Source: Pomacea canaliculata
Taxonomy: Eukaryota; Mollusca; Gastropoda; Architaenioglossa; Ampullariidae
DNA: 64,000 nt
Reading direction: 5' to 3'
Assembly (NCBI RefSeq): GCF_003073045.1
Contig: NC_037590.1
Coordinates: 14,013,591-14,077,590 of the forward strand
The translations under genes were made by a program, and so were the position numbers. The first letter of the stretch is position 1. Every line of letters begins with the position of its first letter. Of the stretch, positions 4,478 through 28,400 are shown piece after piece. The notes beneath the pieces are model-generated. The model made no database searches, was not told the DNA's origin, and saw only the letters and a list, made by a program, of their open reading frames with translations.

Positions 4478-7400
4478 ATGTCGGTAGAAGAACAGAATAC
4501 AGAGATGGATGAGAAGAAAATCCACCAGAATGGCTTTGACAGCGAGGTTAACGTTAAGCCAATTAGTTGCATAGATCATGAGATGAACGTATTATCGAAC
4601 GGCAAGAATTGTTCTCAGCACGAACCAAAACATGGACATGGACCAAAGCATGGACACCACCATGGACCGAAACATGGACACCACCATGGACCAAAGCATG
4701 GGCACCATCATGGAGCGAAACATGGACACCACAAGGGTCCAAAAGATGGACACAACAATTCAGACAAGAGGTCGTTTCTACAGCGCAATGCTTTCTTCAT
4801 CACACTGTTACTTAACGGGATGATAGATGGTCTGGGTTACTCAGTGAAGAGTCAGTACAGATATCGCTTCTTTCACTCCAAGTACGCACACGACCTCCGC
4901 AAGTACAATGTGACTAAGGAGTGTGGTGTGGACCTGCTGCCTGAAGTCCAAGCAAGTATAAGTGTTTATATAGCTATGACAATATGCTTCAATGTCTTAC
5001 TTTGATTTTTAGTGCCTGAAAAACAAGAAACCTTTCGTCCTTCGAATCGATAAGGCATAAATACCAACACGAACATAGATTAATTTTCATATGGATGAGG
5101 TTTGCTTTTCTTTTTTATTTATATTCTTGGAAATGTTTGTAATGAGACAAGTAGCGAAAATTTTTTGATTATTGTTAAATGTTTCCTCTTTGTGTCTTTT
5201 TTTGTTTGTTTTGTATTACTTGTCTGCATAGCTGTTTTTTTCCTTTCATTGTTTGTATTCTATATCTCTTGCTTGGGATTATGCTCCTTTGTCCTTCGTG
5301 AGCAGCTCTTGTTATAAGAGCAAACATTACATTTCATCACTCTTATAACACGTAGAAGTCGAAGTCCGTTTGCTTGCAATGATGAAGTTTATTCTTCTAC
5401 AGTATTAACTATAATAGTTACGCAGTTTTTAATTTTTGTGAACAAACAGGATATAAATAATTGGTCCTATGAAGATGTGGACGGTTATTTAAATATTTAA
5501 TTAATAACGTGTAGCGTCTGTAGGTGACAATTTAAAATATCTCTCACTTTCCAAATAGCAGTTACTCAGTTAAGTATATGTTTTAAAGTTTTGTTGTTTG
5601 GAACATTATTTATGTAGCTATAAATATAAATAAAAAATGTAAATGTAAAATAGAATTTGCAATTTAACTGTCACTAAATAAAAGCTGCTGTGTGCAATGA
5701 GTTGTAGATTTATGCCGTTTTCTTTATTTTATTAATACAAAACCGCCGGAAATACAGCCTGAAAAAGAGAGAAGCTGGTGTCGAAGATATCTAAATAGAT
5801 GAGATGGAAAAGAAGTAAATTCTTGCAATAATTGAACAAAGTAGTAACGGCATTTTCTAAGCTGAAAACATTGGCTAGAGATTGTCATAATTATAAACAG
5901 GGGAAGCAACCTGCCGCGCTCACTACAGAGCAACTCAGGTTGCTTCCCCTGTTTATACCCAAATTCATCCTGCTCTGCAAGACTGATTGCTTAAGTTATC
6001 AATGAAAGTAAGACAATTTTCACGAATATTTTGTTGTGTAGGAGATTGAGGATACCATCAGTCGTGAATCAGCTCAATGGAGTTTATACAACGAATACGT
6101 CACATTAGTCCCTCACATCCTGACCGCTCTGCTGATTGGCCTCAAGTCAGACCAGATGGGCCGTCGTTTTGTTTTCCTCTACCCTTTCTTGACAGCTATT
6201 GTGGACTACATTCTCCTGGCTGTAATCATCCGGTGAGTACATCCACGATATACACATCCCTGTATCATTTCAATAAAAATAACCAATCCTTTATGGTAGA
6301 CAAGCACTTCAGCCTTCGTAACAAACTTTAAACAACTGTAGGTAGAGAACCCGTACGCCTTCAAAATGTGCAATATAACGCCAAACAGATTTAGCACTTC
6401 TAATTAGGATACACGGCTAGACAGTCAATATACATATATAAATATACATATTATAACTTTCTCCAGTTATGCCTATGTTGGTGTTTACATGTCTTGCAGA
6501 TGTTTTCTTAATTTTTATCTCTAATGTTTTCCTAGGAATATGTCTTGAATAGTAGGCAGTGCAAGTTATTACATCAAAGTATGTTGATTTTAAAATATTT
6601 ACTTAACATTTTTTTCTGGTGTTAAAATTCTTTTCAGATTGAATCTGCACTTCGGTTACACGCTCATAGGCGACTTTGTCAGGAGTGTATCCGGAGGAAC
6701 AATAGGCATGCACTTGGCTGCCTACGCCGATCATCTCAGACACACATGGAAAGAAGAAGGAACCGGCAGATGACAACAAAATTCCGGGGAGGCAGCAAAC
6801 TGCCAGAGAAAGCAAAAGAACAAACTGATGACACCGAAGACGACTTCGACATGTCCAGAGAAAATCAGCGGACCTTCAAAATTGTACTCCTAAACGTTGC
6901 CCACAGTCTGTCGTCAAGCATCATCTCATTTGTCACCGGCTATGTCATCCAGTACGCTGGCTTCTTTTACACTCTCATTATTTCTCTTGGCCTTAAATGT
7001 CTTCTTTTTGTTTTCGCATATATCTTTATCACGGAGACAGGTCAGCAGAGGAAGAGTTCAGGATTTATCACTCCACTCAAGATCATCTTAAGGAGAACGA
7101 GAAATCCCAGAAATCGTCGCACTCTTTTCCTCGTTAACTTTGCCGTCGTCTTCACGGTCGTGTCCTTCGTCGTTGAGGGCGAGGTTATGAGGACCTACCA
7201 GATGAGTCCGCCGTTTTGCATGGACTCCGTGCAGTTGGGCTACTTGAGCAGCGAGTCTCGTCTGAAGGGCATCTTGACCATTCCTGTCTTGTGGATGTGG
7301 CGACGATTGGGTTTGATGGAGTCGACCATCGCTGCTGTTGGCCTCTACGCCGACATCGCTTCGACTCTGATGGTGGCAACTATACGGAAGATCTGGGTCT

Positions 7401-9256
7401 TTTTTGTAGGTGCGTGCCTTTATGTATATATGTGTGTGTGTGTGCTCTAGCGCGCGTCGGTAATTGCACTCGATGTTACACTGCATGCATGACTGAAGAG
7501 TTGAACAGACACCGTTTCGTGAGAACGCTATTTAATTGGTCCATTACGTTCACTAAATCTAATGCCGAGGTACAAAAGAAGGAATATAAGTATGATATAC
7601 ACATCAAATGTCACTAAAATCTTTCCAAAATTTAGAGGAAACGACCACTAATTTTACACCAATATCCAACAATCACATAAAGTTTCCCTCCACGCTCTCA
7701 AAAGCGAGGAAACGACAAAAAATATTGAAAGTGTTCAAGAACGCGTATATCAGAACTGTTCATGGACATATTGTTTGTTAAGGGTTACAGCCAATGAGGA
7801 GGCTAGGACCACATACTAGTAAGGCGTATCTCTATACAAACTAATGTTATGGGTTTAGGGTTTAAAGGGATTCTCAAGGTTTGTTATAAGGCTGTGGTGA
7901 CGGTCAAAACGTTGTAAAAATTATGTTTAATTACGATTGCAGTGCACGAGAGCCATGCAGAAGAAATAAATGATTCACTTCTCACTTAATTACCACTCAT
8001 TAGCACTATTTCGGTTGCCGATGTTTATAAAAATCGAAAAAATCCAGTGAAATCGACCCTTGTATCCTTCCGCCGAGTAACCACGATAGCTTCTGGCACA
8101 GTTATCATTCTGGAGGCGCGGAAGTGGGCTTTCGAAGTCTTCGTGACAAGATGGTGGAGATAACAATAGCTGGAAGAGGGGCTAGTCTCGGCATCTGCAA
8201 ACTCCGAGTTCTTTAATATTTCTTTTTATTTGATTTTCTGTCATGGGTAGTTTTTTAGTTCGTGTCGTCTTTGTTTAATTTCAGCTCCCATTGTAGCCAT
8301 TCCTGGATCGCTGTCATCATCCATGACAAAAGCCATCTCGTCTAGGCTGGTTGGCCGTCAAGCCCTGGGTAAGTTGTTTTTTCAGCAAATCCAGTTTTTT
8401 TTAATATAAAGTGGTTCTTTTGAACCCAGCGACCCTGTAAACCTTGTATTCATCTTGTTTTATCAAACATTTCAAGCACTTTCTCTTTACACACCATCTC
8501 TTTATCCACAGTTGCATGTGGCTGCAGAGAAGAAATTTAAGGATATATGTATATGTCAACAGTTTTACACATCTTAAAACAGATAAAAGAGCTGTACTTT
8601 TGTAACAGTTTTCTTTAAAGTAAAAGTAATTTTTGTTGACCTGTGCTGTCTCTAGCATCTTCGTTTGCCGTGATGTTGGCCATTGACACTGTGTTTGCGT
8701 TTGCCGGAGGACAGGCGGGTAACTACCTTTACCAAAGTTTCTTAAGAACACTGCCGACTGCTCCCTTCTACCTGGCCTCTGCCGCCCTGGCAGTGTCTGC
8801 GGTCTTGTATACGTGAGTACAGCTTTTAGTCTTAAATACCGTCTTCGTCGCCATTATTGTCTTGTGTAAAAAAGTCGTGTATAGCTCCCTCTGAAGCATG
8901 GATGTTTTAAGTGGTCGGGTAACACGTTTCCCCCATTTCCTTTAGAATATTTGTATGTTTGTGCGGATTTATTATATTTCTACGTCCATTTAAATTATTT
9001 CGACTAGAGGTGAGCTGTACAAGTGTTGTTATCTCCCTTTAAGAAGCTACCATCGATAAACATTTTTTGTTTATGTACATAATGACAAGTGCCTCATCAT
9101 CATCATCATCATCATCGTCATCATCATTTCGTCGTCGTCGTAAAAGTTTTTGTTAAAAAAAATCTTTTCTTTCTTTTTTTTTTGTCCAGACTTGAAACCA
9201 TTTTACAGCGCGTGTACGCCAAGATAGACTCAAGCAAAGCTGAGCTACATGCATAA
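4478..9256 (+). CDS. Gene 1: SLC46-like MFS transporter with His-rich N-terminus (frame broken in exon 3)
   Basis: Predicted 12-segment transporter of the SLC46/proton-coupled folate transporter type; the substrate is unknown. Exons: 4478-4951, 6042-6232, 6638-7409, 8285-8368, 8656-8812, 9190-9256, giving about 581 residues once frame is allowed for. Exon 1 encodes a soluble tail with five to six PKHGHHHG-type repeats (residues about 50-92), then membrane segment 1 and an extracellular loop with the sequon NVT at residue 144 and a cysteine. Exon 2 carries segments 2 and 3 and the loop motif SDQMGRR. Exon 3 carries a charged loop, SRENQRTFK and YQMSPPFC. Intron 1 starts with GC (4952-4953). 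The nearby GT at 4956 would throw exon 2 into a stop. Exon 3 contains an extra base near 6728 and another indel between about 6775 and 6800; splice sites are intact. A pseudogene is possible, but sequence error seems likelier. Confidence 0.85.
4625..4756 (+). repeat. 24-bp minisatellite encoding the His-rich tail of gene 1
   Basis: Units of 24 bp beginning CCAAAGCATGGACACCAC lie at 4643-4666, 4667-4690, 4691-4714 and 4715-4738, flanked by 18-bp partial units at 4625-4642 and 4739-4756. Each full unit encodes about PKHGHHHG. As the unit length is a multiple of three, copy number can change without breaking the frame. Gene 2 keeps one full and two partial units at the same place. Confidence 0.9.
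4950..4957 (+). other. GC 5' splice site of gene 1 intron 1
   Basis: Exon 1 ends with the codon CAA at 4951 and the intron begins GCAAGT. Exon 2 begins in phase 0 at 6042 (GAGATTGAG), as in all paralogues. Only the GC border keeps the frame: the GT at 4956 would give AGA GAT TGA across the junction. Confidence 0.8.
5892..5957. repeat. Perfect 22-bp inverted repeat (hairpin) in gene 1 intron 1
   Basis: The left arm 5892-5913 and right arm 5936-5957 are exact reverse complements, separated by 22 bases (5914-5935). The transcript of gene 1 could fold into a 22-bp hairpin here. The arms contain AAACAGGGGAAGCAACCTG. The matching part of gene 2 intron 1 has other sequence. It may be a young inverted duplication or a fold-back element end. 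Confidence 0.85.
7862..8100 (+). mobile_element. Truncated Kolobok-like element end in gene 1 intron 3
   Basis: From TTAA at 7862-7865 followed by AGGGATTCT, about 230 bp match the reverse complement of the right part of the full element at 44982-45655, including TTTCGGTTGCCGATGTTTAT and CCGCCGAGTAACCACGATAG. The second inverted end is not found before exon 4 at 8285, so this copy is one-ended. The corresponding intron of gene 2 (15112-15542) lacks it, so it probably arrived after genes 1 and 2 separated. Confidence 0.75.
9094..9141. repeat. Trinucleotide microsatellite (ATC/TCG)n in gene 1 intron 5
   Basis: A run of CAT/ATC triplets is followed by GTC triplets. It is non-coding and lies between exon 5 and exon 6 of gene 1. 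Confidence 0.9.
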
Positions 9257-11975
9257 CCACACGGTTTCATTCCACAAAGAAAAACATAATAATTGTTTCT
9301 TATTTAAACGAGAAGATATACTGCCATGTTTATCCTGCTTATTTAGGTGCTAGACAAGCATTTATACAATATATAAATATGCTATACAAGGCATGAATGT
9401 ACACTCTTATATATGTACATAATATATTCATATTATTTATTAATGTACTAAATAAGACAAAACATTAACTTGAGCAATGGAATAAGTTGATATTTTCATC
9501 TGTGATTTCTCAATCGTGCCAAATATGTAAAATGAGCTAATTGTGATATACTCCTAGTTACCATCACATTTAAATTTTAAAAAAAAATTGCTTAGAGTAT
9601 TTTTATATTTATTTTTATAAACAGGTATACTGTCATAGTATGTATAATACACGAAAGATTAAGAATTCAGAGAAAAATATCCACGTCTGTAGGTGTGCTT
9701 GCGTCTTTCAGATGCCATGAGCAGGAGGCTGTGTGAGCGTACAAACATGAGTTGTCACGTGGTATCATTTGTGAGATTGTGTTATGTGTAATATGTGGTT
9801 CACATAACGGATAAAAAAATGCACGAGTGAGTGCTTTAATTTTTGTGTGTCATGTTGGTGTACGCGTTATTAGTCCTCCTTCATGTACATAATTTTCTCA
9901 TGAAATTTTAATTCAAAATAGGAAAGTAAAAAGCAGCAAAGAAAGATGGCTACACATGTTTGTCAAATTATGTACAAATTTCTCTATATTATGCGCGCTT
10001 ATTGAATAAAATGTTTATAAACCAATTTGCCTGATGTGTGAGGACATTTGTCTCTGTGTGCGCGCGCACAAATATACGCATATATGTATATAGACAAACA
10101 CACACTTTGTAGAGTGATGAGAGAAAAGAGAGCTTTTCCACATAAGGTAAACTAGAAAAAAGGTAAAACTCAAACAAAATAATTGAAACAAAAGAACAAT
10201 GAAAAGAAATAATAAAAAATATAAAAGAATTTATTTTAATACTTTGTAGGTGTTGCATATGCCTAATAAAGTATTACACTACGTTTTCCTATACTTTCAT
10301 TTTTTCACGTCTTAAGCGAGGCAAATGAACATTTTTATTGAGAGAGAAAGACAGGCTGCAAAGAGGGAACACATTTGTGTTTGGGATATGTGTATGATTG
10401 AGTGAGACCAATTAGTGTCGTTCATTAGCCCTAATCTGATGCCGTTGTAGAATGCCACGTGTGGCGTCGCCAAATACAATTGGCTCCATTGAACTTCTCT
10501 TTCATTGGCAGCGACATCGGTCTAGTTCCTTGCTGAGGAAAAAGAGAATGAGAATAAGCATACGGCTCTCTTGCTTACTCTGAATAATGTTGACGACGAC
10601 GACGACAGTGGAGGTTTTTGTGGTGCGAAGCCCGGTTAATGATTGTTACAACATAACATGCTCCATACCATATGCTGAAGATATTCTGACGTCAAGACTC
10701 AAACACAAAAGCAGGCTTGAAGCAGCCTGCATGATGTCACCCGAAGTACCACTCCCCCTCCTCTTCTCCTCCCACCTCTCTGGTCTGACGGCGCCTGGAC
10801 CTAGCCCTGGCGGAACTGCTGAAGCATGACGCAATGGGTGGCACGTTGATGGAGTAGAGATGAACTGCTGACCTTTGTCACGTGGTTTGGAACACGGAAC
10901 TTTCTGCAGCGACAGGGGGGAAGGAGTGAAGTGGTAAAGAGGTGAGCGTATGAGAGTGTAGTGTGTTAATTTTCTGTAATACTTGACAGTGTGTGCGCGT
11001 GAGTGAGTATATAAAAGTCCTCCTCATCAATATTTGGCAGCGTGCCAAATTATTTTACAATTTTAGGAGTTGTGTTTTTGTGACATCTTTTTAATATTCA
11101 GCGTTGTATTTTTACATAACTCGACATCTCTTGTTATCAAATATTCATAAAGTAAACGAGAAAAAAGATATTCAACTAATTTTAAAATAAAAAAAATTTT
11201 TTAAAAGCCGGAAAGAATATTCTGTTGTCAATATATCTAGTCTGAAAGGAAAAATAATTACACACTGACATCTAATATTGCCGAAATCCATCTATTCATC
11301 CCTCCATCCATCATGAACGTGACTTATAAACAATCAAATACGAGTCTGCATAAAAAGAAGCATACATACATAACCCTAAGATAAACAAGACTTTAATATT
11401 TTATTAGCTTTTTATTTGTTTACGTGCCGTGAGGTAAACATTATTTACGATGTATAGAGAAAAGTCGAAATCAACCTTTTTCATCGTCCTCTTTTTTTTC
11501 ATCGATGAAGAACCTATTTTTTGCGATAACGTCTTTAGCGTGTTGTTCAAAAACAATTGTCAAGGACCACTTCACCGGCATCCACAGTTGCTCAAGATTC
11601 CCGGAAGCACACTTAGCGAGGTATCATGGATAAATTATTTAATTCTTCAGTGCTGTCACGTGCTTAAGGTCTACTGCACATCTTACAAAGATGTGGCGCG
11701 AACTGATAAAAATAATACACGAACGATTGGTCTATGCCGTGATTTGGCAGATTTCTTTTTAAAAAAGAGGCAGTATATAATAATAAAATATAGTAGGTGT
11801 CAGTCATTGGGCTGATTTGCCCATTCAACAAGTCAGTGGATATCTTGATGTACGGCTGTGAAGGAGACCGTGTATTTAAAGATCAGAAGAAAACAATACG
11901 ACATTGCGTCAGCAAAAAACAAAAAGCAGTTAACGCACAGGGTCATTAGAGGAACAGCAACAAGTGAATATAAAA
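9257..11975. repeat. Intergenic DNA containing upstream duplicated block, copy 2 (about 9895-11935)
   Basis: The first 600 bp are the 3' flank of gene 1 and match the 3' flank of gene 2 (16561-17160). From about 9895 the sequence is the counterpart of 2255-4440. Relative to copy 1 it has lost the CTG/ATG triplet tract near 2905-2930. No coding exon is supported here. Confidence 0.75.
11873..11880 (+). promoter_or_regulatory. TATA-like core promoter of gene 2
   Basis: TATTTAAA lies about 100 bp upstream of the chosen ATG, in the block conserved with gene 1 (see 4409-4418). This is motif and paralogue evidence only. Confidence 0.4.
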
Positions 11976-14900
11976 ATGGATGACAAGCAAATCTACCAGA
12001 ATGCCTTTGACAGCGAGGTTACCATTAAGCCAATTAATCGCGAAGATCATGAGATGAACGGGTTATCAAACGGAAGGAATTACGAACCAAAACATGGACA
12101 TGGGCCGAAACATGGACACCACAAGGGTCCAAACGATGGACACAGCAATTCAGACAAGAGGTCGTTTCTACAGCGCAATGCTTTCTTCATCACACTGTTA
12201 CTTAACGGAATGATAGATGGTCTTGGCCATTCAGTGAAGAGTCAGTACAGATATCGCTTCTTTCACTCCAAGTACGCACACGACCTCCGCAAGTACAATG
12301 TGACCAAGGAGTGTGGTGTGGACCTGCTGCCTGAAGTCCAAGCAAGTATAAGTGTTTATATAGCTATGACAATAATATGCTTCAATCTCTTGCTTTGATT
12401 TTTAGTGCCCTGAAAAACAAGAAACCTTTCGTCCTTCGATTTGATAAGGCATAAATACCAACACGAACATAAATTAATTTTTATTTATGAGGTTCGCTTT
12501 TCTTTTATATTTATATCACTTGTCTGAAAACTGAACTTGTCTAACTGAGAGAATGCTCTTTGCGAGCTATGAGAGATACAGTGATACAGGTGATAACGAA
12601 GCGCTCCTAAGAAGATGTGGAGTTAAATAGCTAATTAATAATGTATATCATCTGGAGGTGACCGTTTAAAATATCTCTAACTTCGAAAATAGCAGTCTTT
12701 AATTTATGTATACGTGATCAAGTTTTATTGCTGTTTGGAACATTATTTATTCACATAGATGTAAATAAATTTTGCCTTATAACTGTCATTGAACAAAAGC
12801 TGATGAGTGCAATGAGTTGTAGATAATAAGACGAATGTACACTTACCTTGTATACGCACGACGTATTGCACACACACACACAACACTCGACTTGTAGGTG
12901 AATCGAATCGAAGAGGCTCAAGTTCAGAGCAATGTCACTGAGAGTCATAAAGAAGATGGCGGACGAAGACCGTTGTTTTTTCCCAGTTACTCTGGCCATT
13001 AGAGAAAAACGTGCTTTTCTTTTACATGACGTCTTTTTCTGCTTCAAGTGACGTGGAACAAATGACGCACACAAGATGTCAGACACAAGACACCAGTCGT
13101 ACACGAGACAATACGAGACCTGCCACAACTCATGACATAGATTTATGCCGGCAAAAGAGAGGAGCTGATGTTGGGGGTATCCAAATAGAAGACATGGAAG
13201 AGTTGTAAATTCTTGTAACACTTGAACAAGGTATGAACGGTTTTAGCATCAGAGAAACACCTTGTTCCTAGCACTTGTTGGATCTAAAGCTCTGGACACT
13301 CTTCAGGCACGTCCATGCTGCAGGTATCGTAAGTAAAGCCTTGAAATAGTAGAAGACTGAGCACACCATAATTCGTGAGATATGCAGTTGAGCGTTTTTT
13401 CTTCAGGTGACTTGTTGACGACTAAATACCGTGAAAGATGAAGGATCCCACAGCCAAAAAGGCAGCGAACGTAGAAGGACACGGTATTTCCAGAGCAGAA
13501 TTCAGAAATCCTAACATGCAGTTCTTATCTCCCCTGATGACTTAGTATCCATTTCTGTAGAGCAGGATGAGTTGAGGGTGGGATGGGATTTATTTCCATA
13601 GGAACAAGTGGGTCTTGAATCCCTGAGCTATTCCGTAATTAAGCGCGTTAATCCCTGGGCAAGATTATTATTATGACTATCTTTAGGCGACGTGTCTATT
13701 ATTAATCAACATTTTTAACATACACCGCAATAGTCACGAATATTCTGTTGTGTAGGAGATTGAGGATACCATCAGTCGTGAATCGGCTCAATGGAGTTTG
13801 TACAACGAATACGTCACGTTAGTCCCTCACATCCTGACCGCTCTGCTGATTGGCCTCAAGTCAGACCAGATGGGCCGTCGTTTTGTTTTCCTCTACCCTT
13901 TCTTTACAGCTTTGTGGACTACATTCTCATGGCTGTAATCATCCGGTAAGTATCCATAGACAGATATACACGTCCCTGTTTTGTGTCTCTGTATTATTTA
14001 AACAAAAATAATCGATCCCTTATGATAGACAAGCACTCAGCCTTCGTAACAAACTTCAACATCTGCAAGTAGAGAACCCCTCAAAAATGTGCAATATAAC
14101 GCCAGAACAGACTTAGCACATCTAACCAAGATACACAAGATAATCAAAAAAGTATCATTATATATGTAAGTATATATCAATAGACTCATGTTAACATGTC
14201 CTGCAAATGTTTTCTTGCTAGGTATCTTTAATGTTTTCCTGAGGGTAATATATGTTTACCTTGAATAATAGACAGTGGAAGTTATTAAACCAAAGTACTT
14301 TCCATTAAAATATTTTTTCTGGTGTCAAAATTATTTTCAGATTGAATCTTCACTTCGGTTACACGCTCATAGGCGACTTTATCAGGAGTGTATCCGGAGG
14401 AACAATAGGCATGCACTTGGCTGCCTACGCGATCATCTCAGACACACATGGAAAGAAGAAGGAACCGGCAGATGACAACAAAGTATCCGGGAGGGCAGCA
14501 AACTGCCAGAGAAAGCAAAAGAACAAGCTGATGACACCGAGGACGACTTCGACATGTCCAGAGAAAATCAGCGGACCTTCAAAATTGTCTCCTAAACGTG
14601 GCCCACAGTCTGTCGTCCAGCATCATCTCATTTGTCACCGGCTATGTCATCCAGTACGCTGGTTTCTTTTACACTCTCATTATTTCTCTTGGTCTTAAAT
14701 GTCTTCTTTTTGTTTTCGCATATGTCTTTATCACGGAGACAGGTCAGCAGAGGAAGAGTTCAGGATTTATCACTCCACTCAAGATCATCTTAAGGAGAAC
14801 GAGAAATCCCAGAAATCGTCGCTCTCTTTTCCTCGTCAACTTTGCCGTCGTGTTCACCGTCTTGTCCTTTGTCACTGAGGGCGAGGTGATGAAGACCTAC

Positions 14901-16560
14901 CAGATGAGTCCGCCGTTTTGCATGGACTCCGTGCAGCTGGGCTACTTGCACAGCGAGTCTCGTCTGAAGGGCATCTTGACCATTCCTGTCTTGTGGATGT
15001 GGCGACGACTGGGTTTGATGGAGTCGACCATCGCTGCTGTTGGCCTCTACGCTGACATCGCTTCGACTCTGATGTTGGCAACTATTCGGAAGATCTGGGT
15101 CTTTTTTGTAGGTGCGTGCCTGTGTGTGTGTGTATGTCCGCGCGCATATACCCGTAAAGGGTGATTAAAATTTTCCCAGCATTTACGTAATATGACCACT
15201 AATCTTCCACGGGTATTCAAACAATTACAAAAAGTTATCTAAAGCGAGGAAAATAAAAAACGAAACAAAACAAAAAACATTGAAGGTAGAAGCGAAGACT
15301 GTACATGGAGACTACTCTTGTGAAGGTTACAGCCGATGGGAAAGCTAGGACCACATGTTAATAAAGCATATCTGTGTACATACGTTACGTTAGGAATTTA
15401 GTCTCTTTCAGTACAATGTTTGTAGGCGAGTGTCCCAAAAAAGGAAAGAGGGATGTATGCATTTATGTAAATCGTTGGGTTTTTTTCCTTCTCTATTGTT
15501 GTTAGCTAAGCTCTTCAGTTTGTCGTATTTCTTTAATTTCAGCTCCCATTGTAGCCATTCCTGGATCGCTGTCATCATCCATGACAAAAGCCATCTCGTC
15601 ACGGCTGGTTGGCCGTCAAGCCTGGGCAAGTTGTATTTCTTAAGAAAATGCAGTTTTTAAATATAAAGTGTTGATTCTTTCACCATCAGCAACCCTTTAA
15701 ACCTTGCGTTCATCGTGTTTTATTAAAATTGTTGAAAGCATTTCTAGCACTTTAAAGACCACGTTAGAACGATCACATCATTTCTTTATTTGCATGTCTG
15801 CAGAAAAGAAATTAGTTTATATATATATATATATGTCTGTACAGTTTTTCATAGCTTAAAACAAAATTTAGAGATGATTTTTGTAACAATGTTTCTTAAA
15901 AGTAAAAAAGTAATTTTTGTTGACCTGTACTGTCTCTAGCATCTTCGTTTGCCGTGATGTTGGCCATTGACACTGTGTTTGCATTTGCCGGAGGACAGGC
16001 GGGTAACTACCTTTACCAAAATTTCTTGAAAACACTGCCGACTGCTCCCTTCTACCTGGCCGCTGCCACCCTAGCAGTGTCTGCAGCCATGTACTCGTAA
16101 GTACAGTCTTTGTCTTATAGTCTTTACTGTCGTCATTGCTTACAACAGTCGTGTATAGCTTCTATTGAAACTTATGGTTTTTGGAAGTAGGGGCATTTTC
16201 CCTGATATACTTTAGAATATTTGTATATTTGTGCGTATTTATTATATTTCTGCTTTTATTTAAGTAACTCTCACTAGGTGTACAAATATTAGTTATCTCC
16301 CTTTAACAATTTAAAGTCAATAAACAATTTTACGTACACGAGTGCCTTTGGATATGAGAACTATTTGTGCAGCCAAGCCCTTAATAATCAGGTACTGCTC
16401 GAAAATCTGTTAGTGTGCAATTCTGAAAGCCTTTTTGTTAATAAATTTCATTGACAGATTTTTTTAAAAAATCATTCGTTTTTTTTTGTCCAGACTTGAA
16501 ACCATTTTACAGCACGCATACGCCAAGACAGACTCACGCAAAGCTGAGCTACATGCATAA
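11976..16560 (+). CDS. Gene 2: SLC46-like MFS transporter, closest paralogue of gene 1, with four frame breaks
   Basis: Same family and architecture as gene 1. Exons: 11976-12341, 13756-13945, 14341-15111, 15543-15625, 15940-16096, 16494-16560, about 545 residues if frame is kept. The ATG that starts gene 1 is not preserved, so the start is placed at MDDKQIYQNAFDSEV. The His-rich region is short (12087-12146). Exon 2 is 190 bp instead of 191 (one T missing near 13912). Exon 3 has one base missing near 14490 and one near 14589. Exon 4 is 83 bp instead of 84 (one C missing near 15621). Intron 1 begins GCAAGT, and intron 4 also begins GCAAGT where gene 1 has GTAAGT. It carries the most lesions of the cluster, so it is the best pseudogene candidate, but all AG acceptors are intact. 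Confidence 0.8.
12087..12146 (+). repeat. Contracted His-repeat minisatellite of gene 2
   Basis: It comprises one full 24-bp unit (12105-12128) flanked by two 18-bp partial units. Compared with gene 1, three full units (72 bp) are absent and the frame is preserved. Confidence 0.85.
12340..12347 (+). other. GC 5' splice site of gene 2 intron 1
   Basis: Exon 1 ends with CAA at 12341 and the intron begins GCAAGT, as in gene 1. The next exon begins GAGATTGAG at 13756 in phase 0. Confidence 0.8.
12825..13140. mobile_element. About 315-bp insertion in gene 2 intron 1 relative to gene 1
   Basis: Genes 1 and 2 share AATGAGTTGTAGA and then TTTATGCCG, but in gene 2 about 315 bp separate them. The inserted DNA holds a CA run (12872-12882) and a frame starting GAAGATGGCGGACGAAG near 12955 that stays open for about 30 codons. 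No inverted ends are obvious. It could be a short retroposon or a captured first exon; I do not recognise it. Confidence 0.4.
15624..15631 (+). other. GC 5' splice site of gene 2 intron 4
   Basis: After CTGG at 15622-15625 the intron begins GCAAGT, where gene 1 has GTAAGT after the same bases. One C of the preceding run is also missing. Either this is a second GC border in one gene or a decayed site. Confidence 0.6.
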
Positions 16561-18502: not shown

Positions 18503-18522
18503 CTACTACTACTACTACTACT

Positions 18523-18562
<40 letters not shown>

Positions 18563-18583
18563 GCAGCAACAGCAACAACAACA
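18503..18583. repeat. Triplet microsatellite (ACT)n(AAC)n
   Basis: A run of ACT triplets is followed by AAC triplets with CAG interruptions, in intergenic DNA. Confidence 0.9.
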
Positions 18584-19397
18584 CGTAACTTAAGTAGGGC
18601 GCTGCCACAACATTCGGGTTATTATTTTTTGAAGCATTAATCAATTGTATAAACAACACAAAGCCACAATTTTACATCTTATGCCACAGTGAGAGCTACA
18701 GGTAATATGGAACAGCAGCTCGGTTGAACTCCAAAACTTTTAGTGCATTAACTTTTTTCTTTACTTCCCACCATGTCTACAATGCATTTTTGGTTTACCT
18801 GTTCAGTGTTAATTTTTGCATGTTCTTCCCATCAATAATATTTTAATATTTAATATTTTATATGTTTATTATTAGTTAAAGATAGCTTGTAGTTAACGTC
18901 TCTCTCTCGGCGTTTTCTGTGTTCATATTTTGTTCTCTGTCCAGAAGGTAGTTGCTGTTCAAGACCACTTCAATGGTACAGAAAATTGTTCGTACAGATA
19001 GTGTGATTCAGAGCACACATTTTAGTATAGTTTAGTCCTTTTGCACTGCATCACCTGTGACCATGAGAGATAGCATTTGAGTTGGGTGGGGTTGTTCAGA
19101 GTGACATCGCACACGACGATTTTCTTTTTAAAATATGTGTTATATAATAATGCCATTCAGCATGCTGTAGTCATTATACTAGTGCTCCAGCAAGAAGGTT
19201 CCTAAATATTGTGAAATAAGACTTTCAGACGGGTGGAACATTATTATACATAAGAACTTTACATGACGGGCTACTTGTGATCAAAGACAAAAATAATTTC
19301 TTTTATCAGTTGTAACCATAGAAGCGGTTTCGAATTGACCACGGTGAACTATTCAATCCTTGTCAACACAAAGTGCCACACCCAGAAATTTCTAATA

Positions 19398-22300
19398 ATG
19401 GAAAAGGCTGGGAATAACGTTGATACCTTTACAACAAAGAAACAATTCAGTTACGGAAATTATGCGAATCACTGGACACCAAGTCTTTCAAAGAATACAA
19501 CTCGCCCTAGCCCGGACTATGTACGGCATGATCAGTCAAAGAATGAACACCAAGCGTGAGCTAAAGAATGGACATGATCATGGTCATCACAACAGATCAT
19601 TCCTGCAGAAAAACGCATTCTTCATCACAATGCTGCTGAACAGCATGATAGATAATCTGGGCAATACTGCAAGGACACAGTACCGCTACGAGTTCTTTGA
19701 GTCCCAGTTCGCCCACGAGCTTCAAGAGTTCAACGTGTCCACGGAGTGTTCGGAAAGCCGTCATCCCGAAGTCAACGCAAGTAGAAGTGTTTATGTGATC
19801 ATGGCCAATCTTTAACACCATTTATTCAGCCCACAGTTTGTACTAGAAACCTTAGTAGTGAGTATAGACATTATAGAAACATTTGGACGACTTCGTCTAC
19901 AAAATCGAAGCACGACTTCAGTTTTAGTATGATGTTCCTTCCGCATGTAAACGTACTTGTCTTTTTTTTTAGTCTGAAATCTGAAGATTTTGTTGGGTCT
20001 GGGAGTGGTGACAGTAATAGGTTTGGTAGAAAACTTAGGATCGTCATGGAAAAGCTGTCCCTAGTGTACATTTTTGTCTATCTTTTAAATTTCTGACTTC
20101 CAAGCGTTTGCGTTAATGGTAATGTTCATGTTTAGTGAGGTTTGACCGATCCTTGAATTTTCTGCCTTCTCACTTTACTCTATGATGGTTTAGTCGGCAT
20201 CATCATGGGATAATCCTTACAAATTTTTGTATTGTGCTTACCTAATGTTTTAAAAAAAAAATGCAACGTATGTATTCGGTGTCATTTGATAAGCCATTGC
20301 AAAGGCCACACGGAAATACGGAATATTTCTGATCAGATGCAAAGGTAAAAGAGACCAGTACCTCATCCTGTTACGATGAGTCCTTTGTTCCTTAACCAAA
20401 GTTAATCTTTGGGAAACATATTCGTAGTCATACAGACGTTCTTAATGAGAGCATAATCATGAACATCTTTAGGTTACATGACTATGGACATCAACATCTT
20501 CTGCAGGAGATTGAGAATACCATCAGTCGTGAGACGGCTCAGTGGGCCTTATACAGCGATTACGTCACCATTGTACCTCAAATCTTGACAGCTTTGGTAA
20601 TGGGCCTCAAATCGGACCAGATTGGTCGTCGCTTTGTCTTCCTCTACCCTATCTTCACATCTTTTGTGGACTTCAGTATCTTAGCTGTAACCATCGAGTG
20701 AGTACACTTCGTGAGATTTACTTCCCCACAATCAGCAAATTGAAAGTGTTTGTGTTTATTATTGAAAAAATCTTCAGGTTCAGATTTAGAAGATGCAACT
20801 ATTAGGTTAGTCGCTTTATACCCGCTGAATAATACATGTGGGTTGTCAAACAAGATTTCGCGGATAAGGCATTTCAGTCATTATTTGCGGGTAGCAGATT
20901 TACCCATATGGGAATGCTAAGCAAACTGGAGAAAATATGTTTCATAAATATGAACAAAATCAGTAGCTACCAACGGTAGGGGACAAAGTTCATTGACCAA
21001 CCAATCAGTATTTAAAGCTGTTCTTACATCATTTTGAAATATAACAATCTTTCTTTTAGAGCATGCAGCACATTTTGTTTGCCACTGAAATCTTTTTCAG
21101 GCTGAAACTGCACTTTGGCTTGACACTCGTAGGTGACTTCATGAAAGCTTGTCGGGAGGAGCATCAGCCATGCATTTTGCTGCTTATGCTATCATCTCCG
21201 ACACACACGGAAAGAAAAGAGAAGAGGATGGGACAGCAAAAAGCCTGACGAGACCAGCAAAATACTTGATAAGCATGGAAAAGAAGATGATGATTAGCGA
21301 CAACGACCTGGACGTGACTCGCGAGAAACAACGAACCTTCAAAATAGTTCTCCTTCATATTGGAAATGAATTGGCTTCCGGTTTAGTCTTGTTTGTTACT
21401 GGCTACGTCATCGAGAGTGCTGGCTTCTTCTACACCGCGTGCATCACCCTCGGGCTAAAGTTTCTTCTTTTCATTTTCGCTTTCGTCTTCATTACTGAAA
21501 CAGGTGAGCAGAAGAAGAGTCCAGGCTTCATCGCGCCTCTCAGAACACTCTTGGAGACCACGAAGAATCCTAGAAATTTCTGCACCCTTCTCCTCGTCAA
21601 TATGGCGATCGTGTTCCTGGTCGTGTCGCGGATTGCCGAAAAGGACGTCATGACGATCTACCAGATGAGTCCACCGTTTTGTATGGACTCCGTGCATCTG
21701 GGCTACCTGTCCAGCGAGACTCGTCTCAAAGGCATCTTCGCCATTCCTGTCCTGTGGCTGCAGCGACGACTGCACTTCATGGAGTCCACCATCGCTGCTG
21801 TGGGGATGTACTCTGACGCCGCTTCAAACTTTGTGCTAGCAATTATTCGTCAAAGCTGGGTCTTTTTTGTAGGTATGTGCTCTAAACTTGGGATGTTTAG
21901 CTTGAATGTGTGTTTATTTTGTGTGTGTGTGTGTGCGTGCAATGTGCGAATGTCTGTGCTTGTGTAGTATCTTAGCAGCAGTTCCTGTTAGTTTTCATGT
22001 TTCATTTATCTCTTTTACGTTTCAAATTAGCGTTTATAATGCTTTCTGGACATCGTAAGATCCTTGGTCCTTGTGTTTCCTTTCATATATTCTTATGGAC
22101 ATTTAAATCACCAGGTTTATTTTTTTCAGTCCCTATTGTAGCTATTCCTGGTGCGCTGTCATCATCAATGACAAAGGCCATAACGACACGGCTGGTGGGA
22201 CGTCAAGCACTCGGTAAAGTTCGATCAAAAAACAAAACTAAAATAAGAAAACAAAAAGCAATTTGCAGTTGTAAATGAATTTTTTAAGAACTCTCATTGT

Positions 22301-23043
22301 ATTATTGTTTTTCTATTTTTATTTATTTTTTTTGTTCTATCAAGAACATCACATTTTTTCTCATGTTATCGAAACATTAATAAATATATGTAGAACTCTT
22401 GTCTGCAGATAAAATCAAACTTAAGTAATGCAGATCACATTTGGGAAGTATGTTTATTTCGCACTTGCAGGTTGATGGAAAAATACAATTTAAAAATCAT
22501 ATCGGGTTCATTATTTCATATTTCAAAGATTTACCAAAATTTGACAAAGGCGTCTTTAACTACATTTTTGGAATTTTATTATTACTGATAACATCTAACT
22601 GTTTTCACAAACTAAACTTTTTTTTTTTGTTTTTGACTTTTGTTTTGTGTGTGTGTGTGGGGGGGACCGTGAGTAGCGTCCACGTTTGCCTTGATACTGG
22701 TTGTTGAAGAACTGTTTTCATTTGGAGGAGCACAGGCTGGAAACTACCTTTACCAACATTTTGTAGACACTCTGCCAACAGCACCCTTCTACCTAGCATC
22801 ATCTACGTTTGTAGTATCAGCAGTCTTGTACACGTAAGTGCATACCTTGTTACAAATCTTATTGAAATCATCGTCTTCATGAAAGCTACCATTCTTTTTG
22901 AACAGATTTTAACATTTACAATAGACTTACTGGTGTCGCATTCTTTGTGCAGAGCCGAAACCATGTTGCAGCGCAGGTATGTGACGACAGACGCTCAAAG
23001 GGAAGTAAATGTGGTTCCAGCCCTAAAACAAAATAATACCTGA
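19398..23043 (+). CDS. Gene 3: SLC46-like MFS transporter, divergent + strand copy
   Basis: Exons: 19398-19776, 20507-20697, 21101-21872, 22130-22213, 22677-22833, 22953-23043. From exon 2 on the family pattern is clear: SDQIGRR, SDTHGKK, SREKQRTFK-like (TREKQRTFK), YQMSPPFC, and an end exon of 30 codons. The N-terminus is uncertain. The frame starting MEKAGNNVDT at 19398 is hydrophilic like its paralogues but stops at 19557. The frame joining exon 2 is open from ATG 19462 and contains NGHDHGHHN. Either an indel lies near 19550 or translation starts at 19462. Exon 3 lacks one A in the run at 21144, which breaks MK-SLSGG. Intron 1 begins GCAAGT after codon AAC. The exon 5 acceptor follows a GT repeat and seven G, an unusual context. 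Confidence 0.8.
19775..19782 (+). other. GC 5' splice site of gene 3 intron 1
   Basis: Exon 1 ends with AAC at 19776 and the intron begins GCAAGT. Exon 2 begins GAGATTGAG at 20507 in phase 0. Confidence 0.8.
22649..22676 (+). repeat. GT repeat and G run directly before gene 3 exon 5
   Basis: A (GT)n tract and seven G replace the usual pyrimidine tract just before the acceptor GAGTAG at 22671-22676. The T-rich stretch is about 40 bp further upstream. Confidence 0.8.
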
Positions 23044-25427
23044 TGTTGAGCTTTATATTGTATAGTCATCGCTAACCACGACAACATGTACATGTGCTAA
23101 GCTAGGCGATGCATACTAAGGAAGGATGTCCATCTTGCAACTGTATTTTTTTTCAGTTGGTTGATATACTTGAATTGGTTCTTTCGCAATCGTATTCGCT
23201 ATCGCACAGCTTTGCAGTTGTAAGCAGAATATTCATGTATAAAGATGTAAAACAGAAGTAACTACTTTGTGTACGTGTGTACATGTGTCTCTCTATGGAT
23301 ATGTGTTCCCTACCAGGAACTGAGGGGCAAGCATGTGTGTGGGAGAGACAGAGAGAGAGAAACTTTCTAAACTGTGATACACCTCATTTATATACCAGAG
23401 TTTCTATATTAATGATTGAAGAAAACACTTGTTTAAACTGTGATACACCTCTTTTATATACCAGAGTTTCTGCATTAAAGTTAATGATTAAAGAAAATAT
23501 TTGTTCGTGTGTTGTTTTTTAGAGTGTTCATGGTGCAGCGTACTTTCTCTTACTGGTCAAGCTGTTAAATGGTTAGCTAGGGACTGGCTAGGGACTGGCA
23601 GGGAAAAGAAAGGGATCGACGGAGACGAGCGAAAATTATTCTTGTATAAAGTTTGCACCAAGATAATTGCCATTTCTAACACCTCAATCCTAAGTCCCAA
23701 GCTCCCAAATGACGTTTTTAAAAGAACTGCTTTTTTATCATTGTCCTCATGACTTGAGTTTTCTTTTATTTTAAATGTAAAATATGGAAAAAATGTTTAA
23801 TAGCCTCATGTTTTAACTATATCTATTGTCATGCATCGACTACCATTTGTAAAATACACATCAGCTTAACGTTTTAAATGAAAAGAAAACCACAAGGTGC
23901 TGTACTCTTTGTCTTTAAAAACCAAAGACTCAAGCAGTTCATTTGAAAAGGGAACTGAATTTGGTCTTCAGCACAGCAACCTGTTGACTTTAAAAAGGCT
24001 CCTGCTTTGCGATACGGAGAGGACAATCCAGATGCTCAAGAACAAGTTCATGAAGAAACTGAACAAACCCTACGAAACACTTGTTATTTGTTGTTGATCG
24101 TTAGTCAAATAATTCAATGTTTAATTTTATATGACAGCTTTTAGAAGCTTTGTTATCTTTAAATAATGTTTTTGGTTGGTTTGAGTGTTTGGACGAGCGC
24201 TTAGCATTTCTGTCAATCGTCACGGCTTATCGCTGGCGTCACCTGACCCGACCTCCTTTTGAAGTGGTGTCAACCTGTTGCTCCTGACCCGACCCTCTCC
24301 AGCACATGTGGTCTTTCTTGTATCTAGATTAAACGCTGTGACTCGTAGTTCACTTGTAAAATAAATTTCTTGACCTTATCAAAGGTATCAATGTTGATGA
24401 TATTGATGAATGGTGTTGGTGCTGACAGAGATGAAGAAGCAACTAAAGAAAAAATGGACAAAGGAGTGTATGGATCATTTTCTTTTTTTCTCTCTCTCAT
24501 ACACACGCATTTGCAACTTACTCATATTTGGTGACACATAAATACATGTTTACACAAATCACACTGCTTAAATTAATTTTTATCAAAATTTCATCTCCCA
24601 CACAGTTGTCAGTGCAGTTTAAGTTACTTATTAAAAATCGCACATCTTTTGAATTTTGCAAATGGGATTAAGACATATATGCATGTGTGTTAAACATAAA
24701 ATACGTCTGTCCACAATTAAGGACAGAGTGGAATATGCAATATGGAATGATATCTGTCCTTCACTCCCCTCCAGGACAAAAAATTTAGAAAACATCTGTC
24801 AGTAAAGATTTTGGTCCAAACTTCAAGCCACTGGAAAGATGACAAGTTAACAATAGTGATCTCAGTCTCAAAGCTTTTCTAATCTCTTCCCTCTTAAATT
24901 AAGCGTAGTATTTATTGAAAAAGTATTCAAAAGAATTGCAAACCACTGTTATAAATGTGTATTTCTGTTATCAGTGAGTGTGTATTATTAGAAGGCTCGT
25001 CACCTTTGCGCACGCGCTTTTTAAGGTGTCCCCCAAAGCAGTCGCCTCTCAAGATGATATTATTACAGCTAAGAGATCTTCAAGATATTTGGTGTAGCTC
25101 TTGTGCAGCCTACGTGCCTCGAAAATAATGTATTCAATGAGATCACGTGATCGTGATGCTGGCTGCACTGAACAGGTTAAGATAGCATGACAGGCTACAG
25201 AGACTTTGCGCAATGTTTTGGTAGGAGTGTTTTACTTCTACAAAATACAACCTGGTATATAATACACACCTGTTCTGTCTACTGGACCAGTGTCTCAGTG
25301 CAGTGCCTAATGCTGTCCAACATCTGGAATGCCGATCTCACATAACAAAAATTTTAAAAGCTGATTTACAAGAAAAGCGAAACCGTGGTGAACAACTTTT
25401 AATGAAAACAAAGAATATAGAACGGAA
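23044..25427. other. Intergenic DNA between genes 3 and 4
   Basis: No exon is recognised. A direct duplication of about 66 bp lies at 23366-23500. Several short frames occur without family motifs or conserved counterparts. Confidence 0.5.
23366..23500. repeat. Direct tandem duplication of about 66 bp
   Basis: AAACTGTGATACACCTC followed by TTTATATACCAGAGTTTCT occurs twice, starting near 23369 and 23435, and both copies continue with TTAATGATT and GAAGAAAA-type sequence. Confidence 0.8.
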
Positions 25428-28400
25428 ATGGAAAATAAGGAAAAAGTTTCAAAGAGCGTGGAATACGATCTGAACAAGAATCAACAAATAAATGAGCCAT
25501 CAAACAAAAAGAATGTTTTACAGAACAGCAACCACGACGGCATAAAACATGGCTGCCATGACGGCCCAAAGCATGGACCCCGACGGTGAGTCCAAGCACG
25601 GCGCCATCATGGACGAAAACATGAATCTCGCAATGGCTCAGAACATGGACACCACGATGGACCAAAACATGGCCACCATCACGGGTCACATAAGAGGTCG
25701 TTTCTAGAGCGCAACGCCTTCTTCATCACCCTGCTGCTGAATGGAATGATAGACGGTCTGGCCCTGGCTGCCAAGAGTCAGTACCGATACCGGTTCTTTC
25801 ACTCCAAGTACGCCAGTGAGCTCCACAAGTACAATGTCAGCAAGGAATGCGGTGTGAGCCTTCAGCCAGAAGTCCAGGCGAGTAGAAGTATATATATATA
25901 TGCAACAATTGTTTTAAAGAGAGTTAACATATTTTCAATAAATTGTTTATTGAATAAAAACATACGTCCGTCAGTTAAATGCTACATGTCATAAATGAAG
26001 AGAGAGTGTTTTTGTCTATGTCTGTGTGTGTTTTTTTGTTGTTTTGTTGTTGTTGTTTTTTTCTACCAGTATCAATGTAAATATGTCGAGTGCCTAAATA
26101 TAAATGTAAACATAAAACTGCAAACATAAAATTTTTTGTTGAAGTACATGATATAACCACGAACATCTTCTTTTGTAGGAGATTGAGAATAGCATCAGCC
26201 GTGAGACGATCCAATGGACTTTGTACAATAACTACGTCACCATTGTACCTCACATTGTGACCGCTCTGGTGATGGGCCTCAAGTCAGATCAGATAGGCCG
26301 CCGTTTTGTTTTCCTTTACCCTTTCATTACAGCTTTCGTCGACTACATTCTTCTAGCCGTAATCCTTCAGTAAGTTGACTGTAGACTCTGCAGGCACATG
26401 ACAATAATCAATTATCATAATAACAAAATTCTAAAGAAAGTGTTTGATCTAGAACAAGGTTTACTGTGTTTACTTTTATAACCTCCTGGTTCTTGAGAAC
26501 ATTGTGTAATCTAGAGCTGAAAGAGAAGTTCTAAATCGAGTTTAATTGGGAAAATTTGTTGTTCCTATTAATAAATATCCTTCAGTCATAAGCATAAACG
26601 AAATGAACTGTACAAAGGTGGTAAAATATGGTTTAATTTAAAATTGTTTGAACTGTGAATAAACTTAAGATGGTAATAGCTGAACTGAAATTGGGATAAT
26701 TTCAAATGTTTAAATAACAGATTCCTGTAAAGTATTTGTTAGCTACACTTTGTCCTTATCATGGAAATCCTTTTCAGGCTGCAGCTACACTTCGGCTTCA
26801 CACTTATAGGTGACTTTGTGAGGAGTTTGTCTGGAGGAACCATGGCCATGAGTTTGGCTGCTTATGCTGTGATCTCAGACACGCATGGAAAGAAAGAGAA
26901 ACCAGAGGAGGAGAACAAAACTGCCGACAAACATGAACAAAAAGACGATGACGTCGAGAACGACCTCGACATGTCTCGAGAGAAGCAACGAACCTTCAAA
27001 ATCGTTCTTCTTCACGTCGCGCATGATCTGGCCTCCAGCATCATCTCCTTTGCCACTGGCTACGTCATCCAGTACGCTGGCTTTTTCTATACGGTGTGCA
27101 TCACCCTCGGTCTCAAGATTCTGCTGTTCATTTTCGCTCTCCTCTTCATCACTGAGACAGGCAAGCAAAAGAAGAGTCCAGGCTTCATCACACCGCTCAA
27201 GATCATCCTGAAGAGAACAAAAGATCCCAGAAATCGCCGCACCCTGTTCCTCGTCAACATGGCGGTCGTCTTCCTCGTCGTGTCCTTCGTCACGGAGAGG
27301 GAGACGATGACGATCTACCAGATGAGCCCTCCATTTTGTATGGACGCAGTGCAGCTGGGCTACCTGTCCAGTGAGACTCGCCTCAGAGGCATCTTCACCA
27401 TTCCTGTCCTGTGGCTGTGGCGACGACTGCACTTCATGGAGTCCACCATCGCTGCAGTCGGCACCTACTTCTCGGTTGCTGCAACATTTCTGTTGGCATC
27501 AGTTCGTCAAACCTGGGTCTTCTTCGTAGGTACGTCTACGCTGGTGTCCATTTAAGTGTCCATTAAATATCCACCATATAATTCTTTTAAATAATATTGC
27601 TTTACCACATAAGTAGGGTTTCTCTTTATAAGATATAGGTTTTATTTTATATGTAACTCTATTTTACTCTATTCTAATTTTTGTCCTTCGTCCATCTCTT
27701 ATTTCTGTCTTCTTACACGCACTTGCTCACACAACGTCTCCATAGAAACAAGCCAAGCACTGGTGATGAAATAGTGAAGTTAAAGGTTATTTAAAGAGAA
27801 ACTACTCAAGTGGTATTCAAATCCTTATTTTCTTGTAACCTTTCTTTCACTTCAGTGCCTGTTGTAGCTATTCCTGGGTCGCTGTCCTCGTCCATGACAA
27901 AGGCCATCACTTCACGGCTGGTTGGTCGCCAAGCCCTCGGTTAGTATGGAGTTTCTGATAAACTTTCAGGTTTTAAACATGTTTCAAGTTTATTTTCTCC
28001 CACTAAAAATATAAGAAATGTTATCGCTCTTCTCGATAACGAATCCACTTCGGGTTTTATATTAATCCTGTATTAAATAAAGCAACACAAATATAATATA
28101 TATATACACTGTAAGTAGTAAGTTAAGAGAAATATTTTCTCAAGTCTGGGTGGAGTAGGTATTCTAATACAGAAAGAATTATTTGGTGTAGGCAACATTT
28201 CTTTAGACAGTCGCAAAGCGATGTGTATCTGCAGAGTGATGTTTCTGTAACTGAAGAGCATCTTCTCAAGTTTCTTCTTTGCACTTTCATCCCCAGCATC
28301 TTCATTTGCCGTGATGTTGGCTATTGACGAAGTGTTTTCATTTGGAGGAGGGCAGGCTGGAAACTATTTATACGAAAAGTTTGTGGACACTGTACCGACA

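What the first reader, a model, noticed from the sequence alone, without database searches (positions are those of the whole stretch)
4949..25883. Same intron uses a GC 5' splice site in four adjacent paralogues
Intron 1 begins GCAAGT in genes 1, 2 and 3 and GCGAGT in gene 4, while gene 5 has GTAAGT and the - strand genes GTATGT or GTATGC at the same phase-0 position. A nearby GT in gene 1 (4956) would give a stop in exon 2. GC-AG introns are known as a minority class often tied to alternative splicing. Retention through at least three duplications suggests constraint or one ancestral change inherited by this subgroup.
Basis: partly seen in the sequence, partly recalled or inferred. Interest (0 to 1): 0.7.

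Follow-up and report, generated by a model that had tools for sequence, protein, structure and literature searches.

The report
Inherited GC splice donor in transporters
Four neighbouring snail transporter genes share an unusual but well-known "GC" splice start, most likely inherited from one ancestral copy with a single-letter change; this is a normal minority type of splicing, with a small conserved stretch beside it that could be worth a test.

Summary
Observation confirmed. Intron 1 starts GCAAGT in genes 1-3 and GCGAGT in gene 4; gene 5 and four minus-strand paralogues have GT at the same phase-0 position. Downstream GTs shared by all four genes (offsets +4, +10) frameshift into an early stop; a shared in-frame GT at -6 is very weak.
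The genes are a tandem SLC46/PCFT-like transporter array, probably Pomacea canaliculata (assembly size). Best reading: ordinary GC-AG splicing, from one T>C change in the ancestor of genes 1-4. Tree support is only 77-78% and rivals are not rejected. Chance retention is about 0.5, so sharing is no evidence of constraint.
One odd feature: +7..+20 of intron 1 match in 10 of 14 columns across genes 1, 3 and 4, against 1-4 in introns 2-5 (nominal P 0.005, post hoc). Alternative splicing is untested: no RNA data.

The parts
4952..6041 (+). gene 1 intron 1, GC-AG, 1090 nt (donor CAA|GCAAGTAT)
12342..13755 (+). gene 2 intron 1, GC-AG, 1414 nt (donor CAA|GCAAGTAT)
19777..20506 (+). gene 3 intron 1, GC-AG, 730 nt (donor AAC|GCAAGTAG)
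25878..26178 (+). gene 4 intron 1, GC-AG, 301 nt (donor CAG|GCGAGTAG)
31430..31755 (+). gene 5 intron 1, GT-AG comparison, 326 nt (donor CAA|GTAAGTGT)
15626..15939 (+). gene 2 intron 4, a fifth GC-AG intron, 314 nt (TGG|GCAAGTTG; gene 1 has GTAAGTTG); a one-base deletion relative to the gene 4 template lies at about 15620
4958..4971 (+). gene 1, conserved +7..+20 stretch next to the GC donor (ATAAGTGTTTATAT)
12348..12361 (+). gene 2, same stretch (ATAAGTGTTTATAT)
19783..19796 (+). gene 3, same stretch (AGAAGTGTTTATGT)
25884..25897 (+). gene 4, same stretch (AGAAGTATATATAT)
59654..60044 (-). minus gene m1 intron 1, GT-AG
53741..54089 (-). minus gene m2 intron 1, GT-AG
47174..47591 (-). minus gene m3 intron 1, GT-AG
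40516..40909 (-). minus gene m4 intron 1, GT-AG (GTATGC)

Best explanation
Intron 1 of genes 1-4 is an ordinary GC-AG intron removed by the major (U2-type) spliceosome. A single T>C change at +2 arose in the common ancestor of genes 1-4, after it split from gene 5, and local tandem duplication then passed it to all four. U1 snRNA recognises the site because the rest of the donor stays fairly close to consensus (all four keep AGTA at +4..+7; +3 is A or G). The junction at GC keeps the protein in frame (PEVQ|EIE or PEVN|EIE). Shown: the sequences, the frame, best trees needing one change, and canonical full-length U1 genes. Inferred: that the GC site is the one used in the transcripts, and that one event rather than two explains it.
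For: Junction sequences, phase 0 and AG acceptors at all nine homologous positions. Downstream GT donors shared by all four genes (offsets +4, +10) give a stop two codons past the junction codon; the in-frame GT at offset +12 is missing in gene 4. In U1 pairing energy, in a fixed register, the GC site beats every GT from -30 to +60 in genes 1, 2 and 4. One change on the best protein and DNA trees. Purifying selection: omega 0.15-0.26 among genes 1-4, so these are not old pseudogenes. 19 of 20 U1 copies over Rfam's cut-off begin ATACTTACCTG (42 candidates scored, so the copy number is a lower bound), so no special U1 is needed. Literature: GC-AG is 0.98% of animal introns (PMC7072748, Table 1); in mammals 298 GT>GC against 40 GC>GT conversions (PMC2490688, part 1 of 2 of the text).
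Against: No transcript data. Clade support for genes 1-4 is only 77/76 and 78/89 (44/75 on third positions), and a tree with gene 5 grouped with genes 3+4 or with genes 1+2 is not rejected (p-AU 0.122 and 0.217 protein; 0.114 and 0.155 DNA), which would mean two changes. Compensation is uneven: of 45 donors ranked by U1 pairing energy, genes 1 and 2 (-2.7) and gene 3 (-0.9) lie among the weakest five, and only gene 4 (-9.4) is strong. In gene 3 a GT at offset +59 scores better (-2.4) than the GC site. An in-frame but very weak GT lies at offset -6 in all four genes.
Confidence: 0.83

Rival explanations
1. The GC donor and the +7..+20 stretch beside it together form a selected, deliberately weak or regulated donor: regulated splicing of intron 1, with the shared frameshifting GTs at offsets +4 and +10 acting as unproductive alternatives.
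For: Positions +7..+20 are identical in genes 1, 3 and 4 at 10 of 14 columns, against 1, 1, 1 and 4 of 14 in introns 2-5 of the same genes (with gene 2 in place of gene 1: 10, against 2, 1, 0 and 5); letting each gene slide by up to 4 bases raises introns 2-5 only to 3, 4, 5 and 4. 48 of 140 four-fold sites are identical in the same three genes, giving P 0.005 for 10 or more of 14. Conservation stops at +21 (2 of 14 for +21..+34). Donors in genes 1-3 pair weakly with U1. [quoted passage not shown]
Against: The stretch was picked after looking at five introns (about 0.025 after correction for five, and its ends were chosen post hoc). Gapped scores of the 60 nt after +6 do not single out intron 1 (z -1.2, 1.2, -0.6 for the three pairs), while intron 3 of genes 1/3 (z 4.9) and intron 5 of genes 1/4 (z 3.8) do stand out. 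No RNA data. The RNAalifold pairs all lie in exon 1 and leave the stretch unpaired. Neutral retention of GC is about 0.5.
Confidence: 0.15
2. A different donor is really used, for example the in-frame GT at offset -6 or +12, and the GC only looks like a junction because GCAAGT resembles a donor.
For: An in-frame GT lies at offset -6 in genes 1-5, and one at offset +12 in genes 1-3.
Against: Offset -6 sites pair poorly with U1 (+5.2 to +6.8 kcal/mol in genes 1-4) and would remove two residues that align with residues encoded in the GT paralogues. Offset +12 is AT in gene 4. The GC falls exactly at the homologous junction of five GT paralogues.
Confidence: 0.05
3. Genes 1-3 are decaying pseudogenes or poor assembly, and the GC donors are decay or sequence error.
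For: Frameshifts relative to gene 4: gene 1 two, gene 2 four, gene 3 three in about 1430 nt each. Gene 2's second GC donor lies beside one of them.
Against: No in-frame stops; omega 0.26 between genes 1 and 2 and 0.15-0.22 among the other pairs of genes 1-4; gene 4, also GC, reads open through the modelled part (it was the template, so a frameshift count of zero is by construction); the same C in four genes is not random error. Frameshifts also occur in the GT genes m1, m3 and m4, which points to long-read indel errors (PacBio assembly, PMC6129957, passages).
Confidence: 0.07
4. Two or more independent T>C changes, or one gain followed by a reversal to GT in gene 5.
For: Trees with gene 5 inside the group are not rejected. 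Gene 2 intron 4 shows that a separate GT>GC difference exists in this array.
Against: The best protein and DNA trees need one change. Genes 1-4, not gene 5, share the +7..+20 stretch.
Confidence: 0.15

Closest known systems
Wheat polyphenol oxidase genes Ppo-A1, Ppo-B1, Ppo-D1, intron II (PMC13412282, passages)
   Same: The same intron has a GC-AG boundary in several related copies of one gene family.
   Different: Plant homoeologues, second intron; splice variants are reported there. Here: animal tandem paralogues, first coding intron, no transcript data.
Endoglucanase (GHF5) genes of plant-parasitic nematodes, introns 13, 17a and 17b (PMC2633302, passage)
   Same: Animal gene family in which one intron position has GC-AG in some homologues and GT-AG in the rest.
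   Different: Three positions, a minority of homologues; the passage gives no history of the change. Here one position, four adjacent tandem copies.
GNAI1 intron 6 in sauropsids and mammals (PMC5896119, passages)
   Same: A GT>GC switch in an ancestor, then long conservation with an extended GCAAGT context.
   Different: Conserved among orthologues of one gene, not among tandem paralogues; no exon-skipping isoform was supported there.
let-2 intron 10 of C. elegans (described in PMC2490688, part 1 of 2)
   Same: A conserved C at +2.
   Different: There the GC is reported to be essential for developmentally regulated splicing; nothing of the kind is shown here.
Gastropod haemocyanin introns (PMC7931591, passages)
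   Same: GC-AG introns in a snail gene family, 0.7% of splice sites.

Membership tests
GC-AG introns of the U2 type | GC at intron +1,+2 | tested here: met
   4 of 9 paralogues at intron 1, plus gene 2 intron 4
GC-AG introns of the U2 type | AG acceptor with continuous reading frame | tested here: met
   Acceptors at 6042, 13756, 20507, 26179; phase 0, in frame across the junction
GC-AG introns of the U2 type | Rest of the donor closer to consensus than in GT introns | tested here: inconclusive
   Matches to CAG|G.AAGT outside +2: 7, 7, 6, 7 of 8 for intron 1 of genes 1-4 and 6 for gene 2 intron 4, against a mean of 5.72 for 40 GT donors; but by U1 pairing energy genes 1-3 are among the weakest five of 45
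GC-AG introns of the U2 type | Spliced transcripts across the junction | not testable with these tools
   No RNA reads or cDNA of this species on hand
GC-AG introns of the U2 type | Standard U1 snRNA available | tested here: met
   19 of 20 U1 copies over the Rfam cut-off begin ATACTTACCTG; the other (L055) has a diverged 5' end
GC introns under regulated alternative splicing | More than one isoform, dependent on the C at +2 | not testable with these tools
   No RNA data
SLC46 / proton-coupled folate transporter-like MFS proteins | Sequence homology over the transporter core | tested here: met
   Profile of 3 of the 9 proteins against PDB: one hit at E up to 0.01, 7bc6 (proton-coupled folate transporter), E 2.6e-16; Pfam MFS_1 over its cut-off for 1 of 3
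SLC46 / proton-coupled folate transporter-like MFS proteins | Transport of folate or a related substrate | not testable with these tools
   No functional data; substrate unknown

The most novel reading that the evidence does not exclude
In the genes 1-4 lineage, the weak GC donor is kept together with a new, selected 14-nt element (AKAAGTRTWTATRT, +7..+20) that makes an otherwise poor site usable or regulated. This would be a co-inherited "weak donor plus downstream helper" module spread by tandem duplication. A natural candidate reader would be a U-rich-binding factor of the TIA1 kind (recalled, not tested).
Probability: 0.13. Interest if true: 0.5.

Novelty: new member of a known kind. Interest (0 to 1): 0.24.

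Why it matters
It is a clean natural series: one intron in nine tandem paralogues, five with GT and four with GC. It can be used to ask whether GC donors drift neutrally or are recruited for regulation, which the mammalian study discusses as alternatives (PMC2490688, part 1 of 2). By itself it shows inheritance of a minority splice site and does not change what is known about splicing.

Tried and rejected
Constraint inferred from retention alone: rejected as an argument, since neutral retention is roughly 0.51 on a star tree from rounded four-fold distances. Special U1 for GC donors: none found among the copies over the Rfam cut-off. One truncated chimera on contig 14 (L061, 34.8 bits, under the cut-off) begins ATACTTGCCTG, which would pair with a C at +2, but its body after about 55 nt is not U1. 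Conserved RNA structure across the junction: RNAalifold gave -3.7 kcal/mol (folding -4.2, covariation +0.5); 3 of 13 pairs have a change on both sides in at least one sequence, but all 13 lie in exon 1. A pairing between the +7..+20 stretch and the acceptor region was looked at by eye and not pursued. Gapped scores of the 60 nt after +6 did not single out intron 1 and did single out intron 3 (genes 1/3) and intron 5 (genes 1/4), so the stretch is short and shows only without gaps. Acceptor-side conservation (-4..-17 identical in genes 1, 3, 4) is 7 of 14 for intron 1 against 8, 6, 1 and 4 for introns 2-5: not special. Outgroups: the distant relatives on contigs 1 and 8 were compared by tblastn only. 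The three contig 8 genes are open through the intron 1 position; the contig 1 pair gave no exon 1 match at E 0.05. Neither can polarise the change. The species' own genome-wide GC-AG rate was not measured; I used the published animal mean. Papers on GC introns shared within gene families: searches; three listed papers that I opened (PMC3413518, a reference only; PMC3505178, one intron of one gene; PMC6406514, none found there; passages) gave no closer case.
Full report
What was checked. Intron 1 begins GCAAGT after 4951, 12341 and 19776, and GCGAGT after 25877. Gene 5 has GTAAGT after 31429. The minus-strand genes (called m1 to m4 from the right end) have GTATGT at 60045, 54090 and 47592 and GTATGC at 40910. 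All nine introns end in AG, and the junction is phase 0 in all, within a conserved protein motif (PEVQ|EIE in genes 1, 2, 4 and 5, PEVN|EIE in gene 3, PEVK|AIE or PEEK|AIE in the minus genes).

Whole family. Nine genes with five modelled introns each give 45 introns. Forty begin GT and five begin GC: the four above and gene 2 intron 4 (TGG|GCAAGTTG after 15625, where gene 1 has TGG|GTAAGTTG). Introns in untranslated regions were not modelled, so "intron 1" is the first coding intron found. Searching the whole genome with exon 2 and exon 3 proteins found these nine genes and only distant relatives elsewhere: two places on contig 1 and three on contig 8 (the tool scores only the best candidates). 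No search with exon 1 was completed. The proteins are SLC46-like: a profile of three of the nine matched one molecule in the PDB at E up to 0.01, the proton-coupled folate transporter 7bc6, E 2.6e-16. Pfam MFS_1 was over its cut-off for one of three. NCBIfam gave only weak, far-below-cut-off matches to MFS efflux models, which I read as general MFS similarity. The assembly (440,159,624 bases, contig 1 of 45,418,568) fits the published Pomacea canaliculata assembly (440.1 Mb, 14 large scaffolds, longest 45.4 Mb; PMC6129957, passages); the species is inferred from this alone.

Is the GC the donor? Between -30 and +60 around the junction, the GT dinucleotides present in all four genes are at offsets -6, +4 and +10. 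Offsets +4 and +10 shift the frame and meet a stop two codons after the junction codon. Offset -6 is in frame but pairs very poorly with U1 (+5.2 to +6.8 kcal/mol). An in-frame GT at +12 exists in genes 1-3 but is AT in gene 4. In U1 pairing energy, in a fixed register, the GC site is best in genes 1, 2 and 4. In gene 3 a GT at offset +59 scores -2.4 against -0.9. Outside +2, the five GC donors match the consensus at 6 or 7 of 8 positions against a mean of 5.72 for the 40 GT donors. Against the idea of compensation, the intron 1 donors of genes 1-3 rank among the weakest five of 45 by energy, and only gene 4's is strong.

Are the genes alive? A frameshift-tolerant alignment found 2, 4 and 3 frameshifts of one or two bases in genes 1, 2 and 3 against gene 4, three each in m1, m3 and m4 against m2, and no in-frame stops. 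Genes 4, 5 and m2 were templates, so their zero is by construction; they do read open. The last frameshift in m1, m3 and m4 sits at one homologous place and is more probably a deletion in m2. Some of those in the variable linker of exon 3 are placed only roughly. The modelled part starts at the exon 1 core; by eye, gene 4's N-terminal part upstream of it also looks shifted. Omega is 0.26 for genes 1-2 and 0.15-0.22 for the other pairs among genes 1-4. This fits working genes in a long-read assembly with residual indels; recent decay of some copies is not excluded.

How did it arise? Protein and DNA trees put genes 1-4 on one side of a branch, with support 77/76 and 78/89 (44/75 on third positions alone), so one T>C change suffices. 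Holding gene 5 with genes 3+4, or with genes 1+2, is not rejected (p-AU 0.122 and 0.217 protein; 0.114 and 0.155 DNA); holding gene 5 with gene 4 alone or gene 3 alone is rejected on the protein tree (0.0072 and 0.0048). Genes 1, 3 and 4 differ by 0.61-0.87 substitutions per four-fold site. On a star tree from those sites, the transition length is 0.68, so C would be kept in all four lineages with probability about 0.51 even if GT and GC were equivalent. Retention is therefore no evidence of constraint. In mammals, GT>GC changes outnumber the reverse, 298 to 40 (PMC2490688, part 1 of 2 of the text).

The one unusual feature. In genes 1, 3 and 4 the bases +7..+20 of intron 1 are identical at 10 of 14 columns; in introns 2-5 the same window gives 1, 1, 1 and 4. 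With 48 of 140 four-fold columns identical in the same genes, 10 or more of 14 has P 0.005, about 0.025 after allowing for five introns, and the window was chosen after seeing the data. The match ends at +20. Gapped alignments of the 60 nt after +6 do not single out intron 1; they single out intron 3 of genes 1/3 (z 4.9) and intron 5 of genes 1/4 (z 3.8). The predicted consensus fold leaves the stretch unpaired. This is a lead for a helper element next to a weak donor, not a demonstration.

Machinery. 19 of 20 U1 copies over the Rfam cut-off have the standard 5' end ATACTTACCTG. One truncated U1-like chimera under the cut-off begins ATACTTGCCTG; its body is not U1, and I do not propose that it works.

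Compared with what is known. GC-AG introns average 0.983% of animal introns (PMC7072748, Table 1) and 0.7% of splice sites in haemocyanin genes of one gastropod group (PMC7931591, passages). They are enriched in first introns in human and mouse (PMC7242645, abstract and passages). Sharing across related copies of one family is reported in wheat Ppo genes (PMC13412282, passages), and one-position GC-AG in some homologues in nematode endoglucanases (PMC2633302, passage). An ancestral GT>GC switch conserved without exon-skipping isoforms is reported for GNAI1 (PMC5896119, passages). This finding is a new member of that known kind. I saw no report of this array or this intron in the listings of searches; supplementary files were not open to me.

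Noticed in passing
window 15620-15640: Gene 2 intron 4 is a second, separate GC-AG intron, next to a one-base deletion relative to the gene 4 template.
   Followed up: partly
window 4616-4780, 12080-12160, 25540-25690: By eye, genes 1, 2 and 4 encode a histidine-rich N-terminal tail before the transporter core (PKHGHHHG-like repeats in gene 1); gene 3 has a short version, and gene 5 and the minus genes seem to lack it. Possibly metal-binding.
   Followed up: no
window coding exons of genes 1-3 and m1, m3, m4: One- or two-base frameshifts without in-frame stops, probably long-read assembly indels.
   Followed up: partly
G000 contig 14, about 12.59-12.64 Mb (L057, L059, L061, L065): Chimeric U1-like copies: the first ~55 nt of U1 joined to unrelated sequence, with an upstream region like that of nearby full-length U1 genes. 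One (L061) has G in place of A at U1 position 7.
   Followed up: partly
window 29795-30215: By eye, a minisatellite of ACACAGTAGCTATAACAACTAT-like units between genes 4 and 5.
   Followed up: no
window 5896-5953: By eye, an inverted repeat (AACAGGGGAAGCAACCTG ... CAGGTTGCTTCCCCTGTT) inside gene 1 intron 1, perhaps a small mobile element.
   Followed up: no
window 46983 and 40325: Intron 2 of m3 and m4 starts with trinucleotide-rich runs (AAT/AAC units; m4 also AGT) directly after the donor.
   Followed up: no
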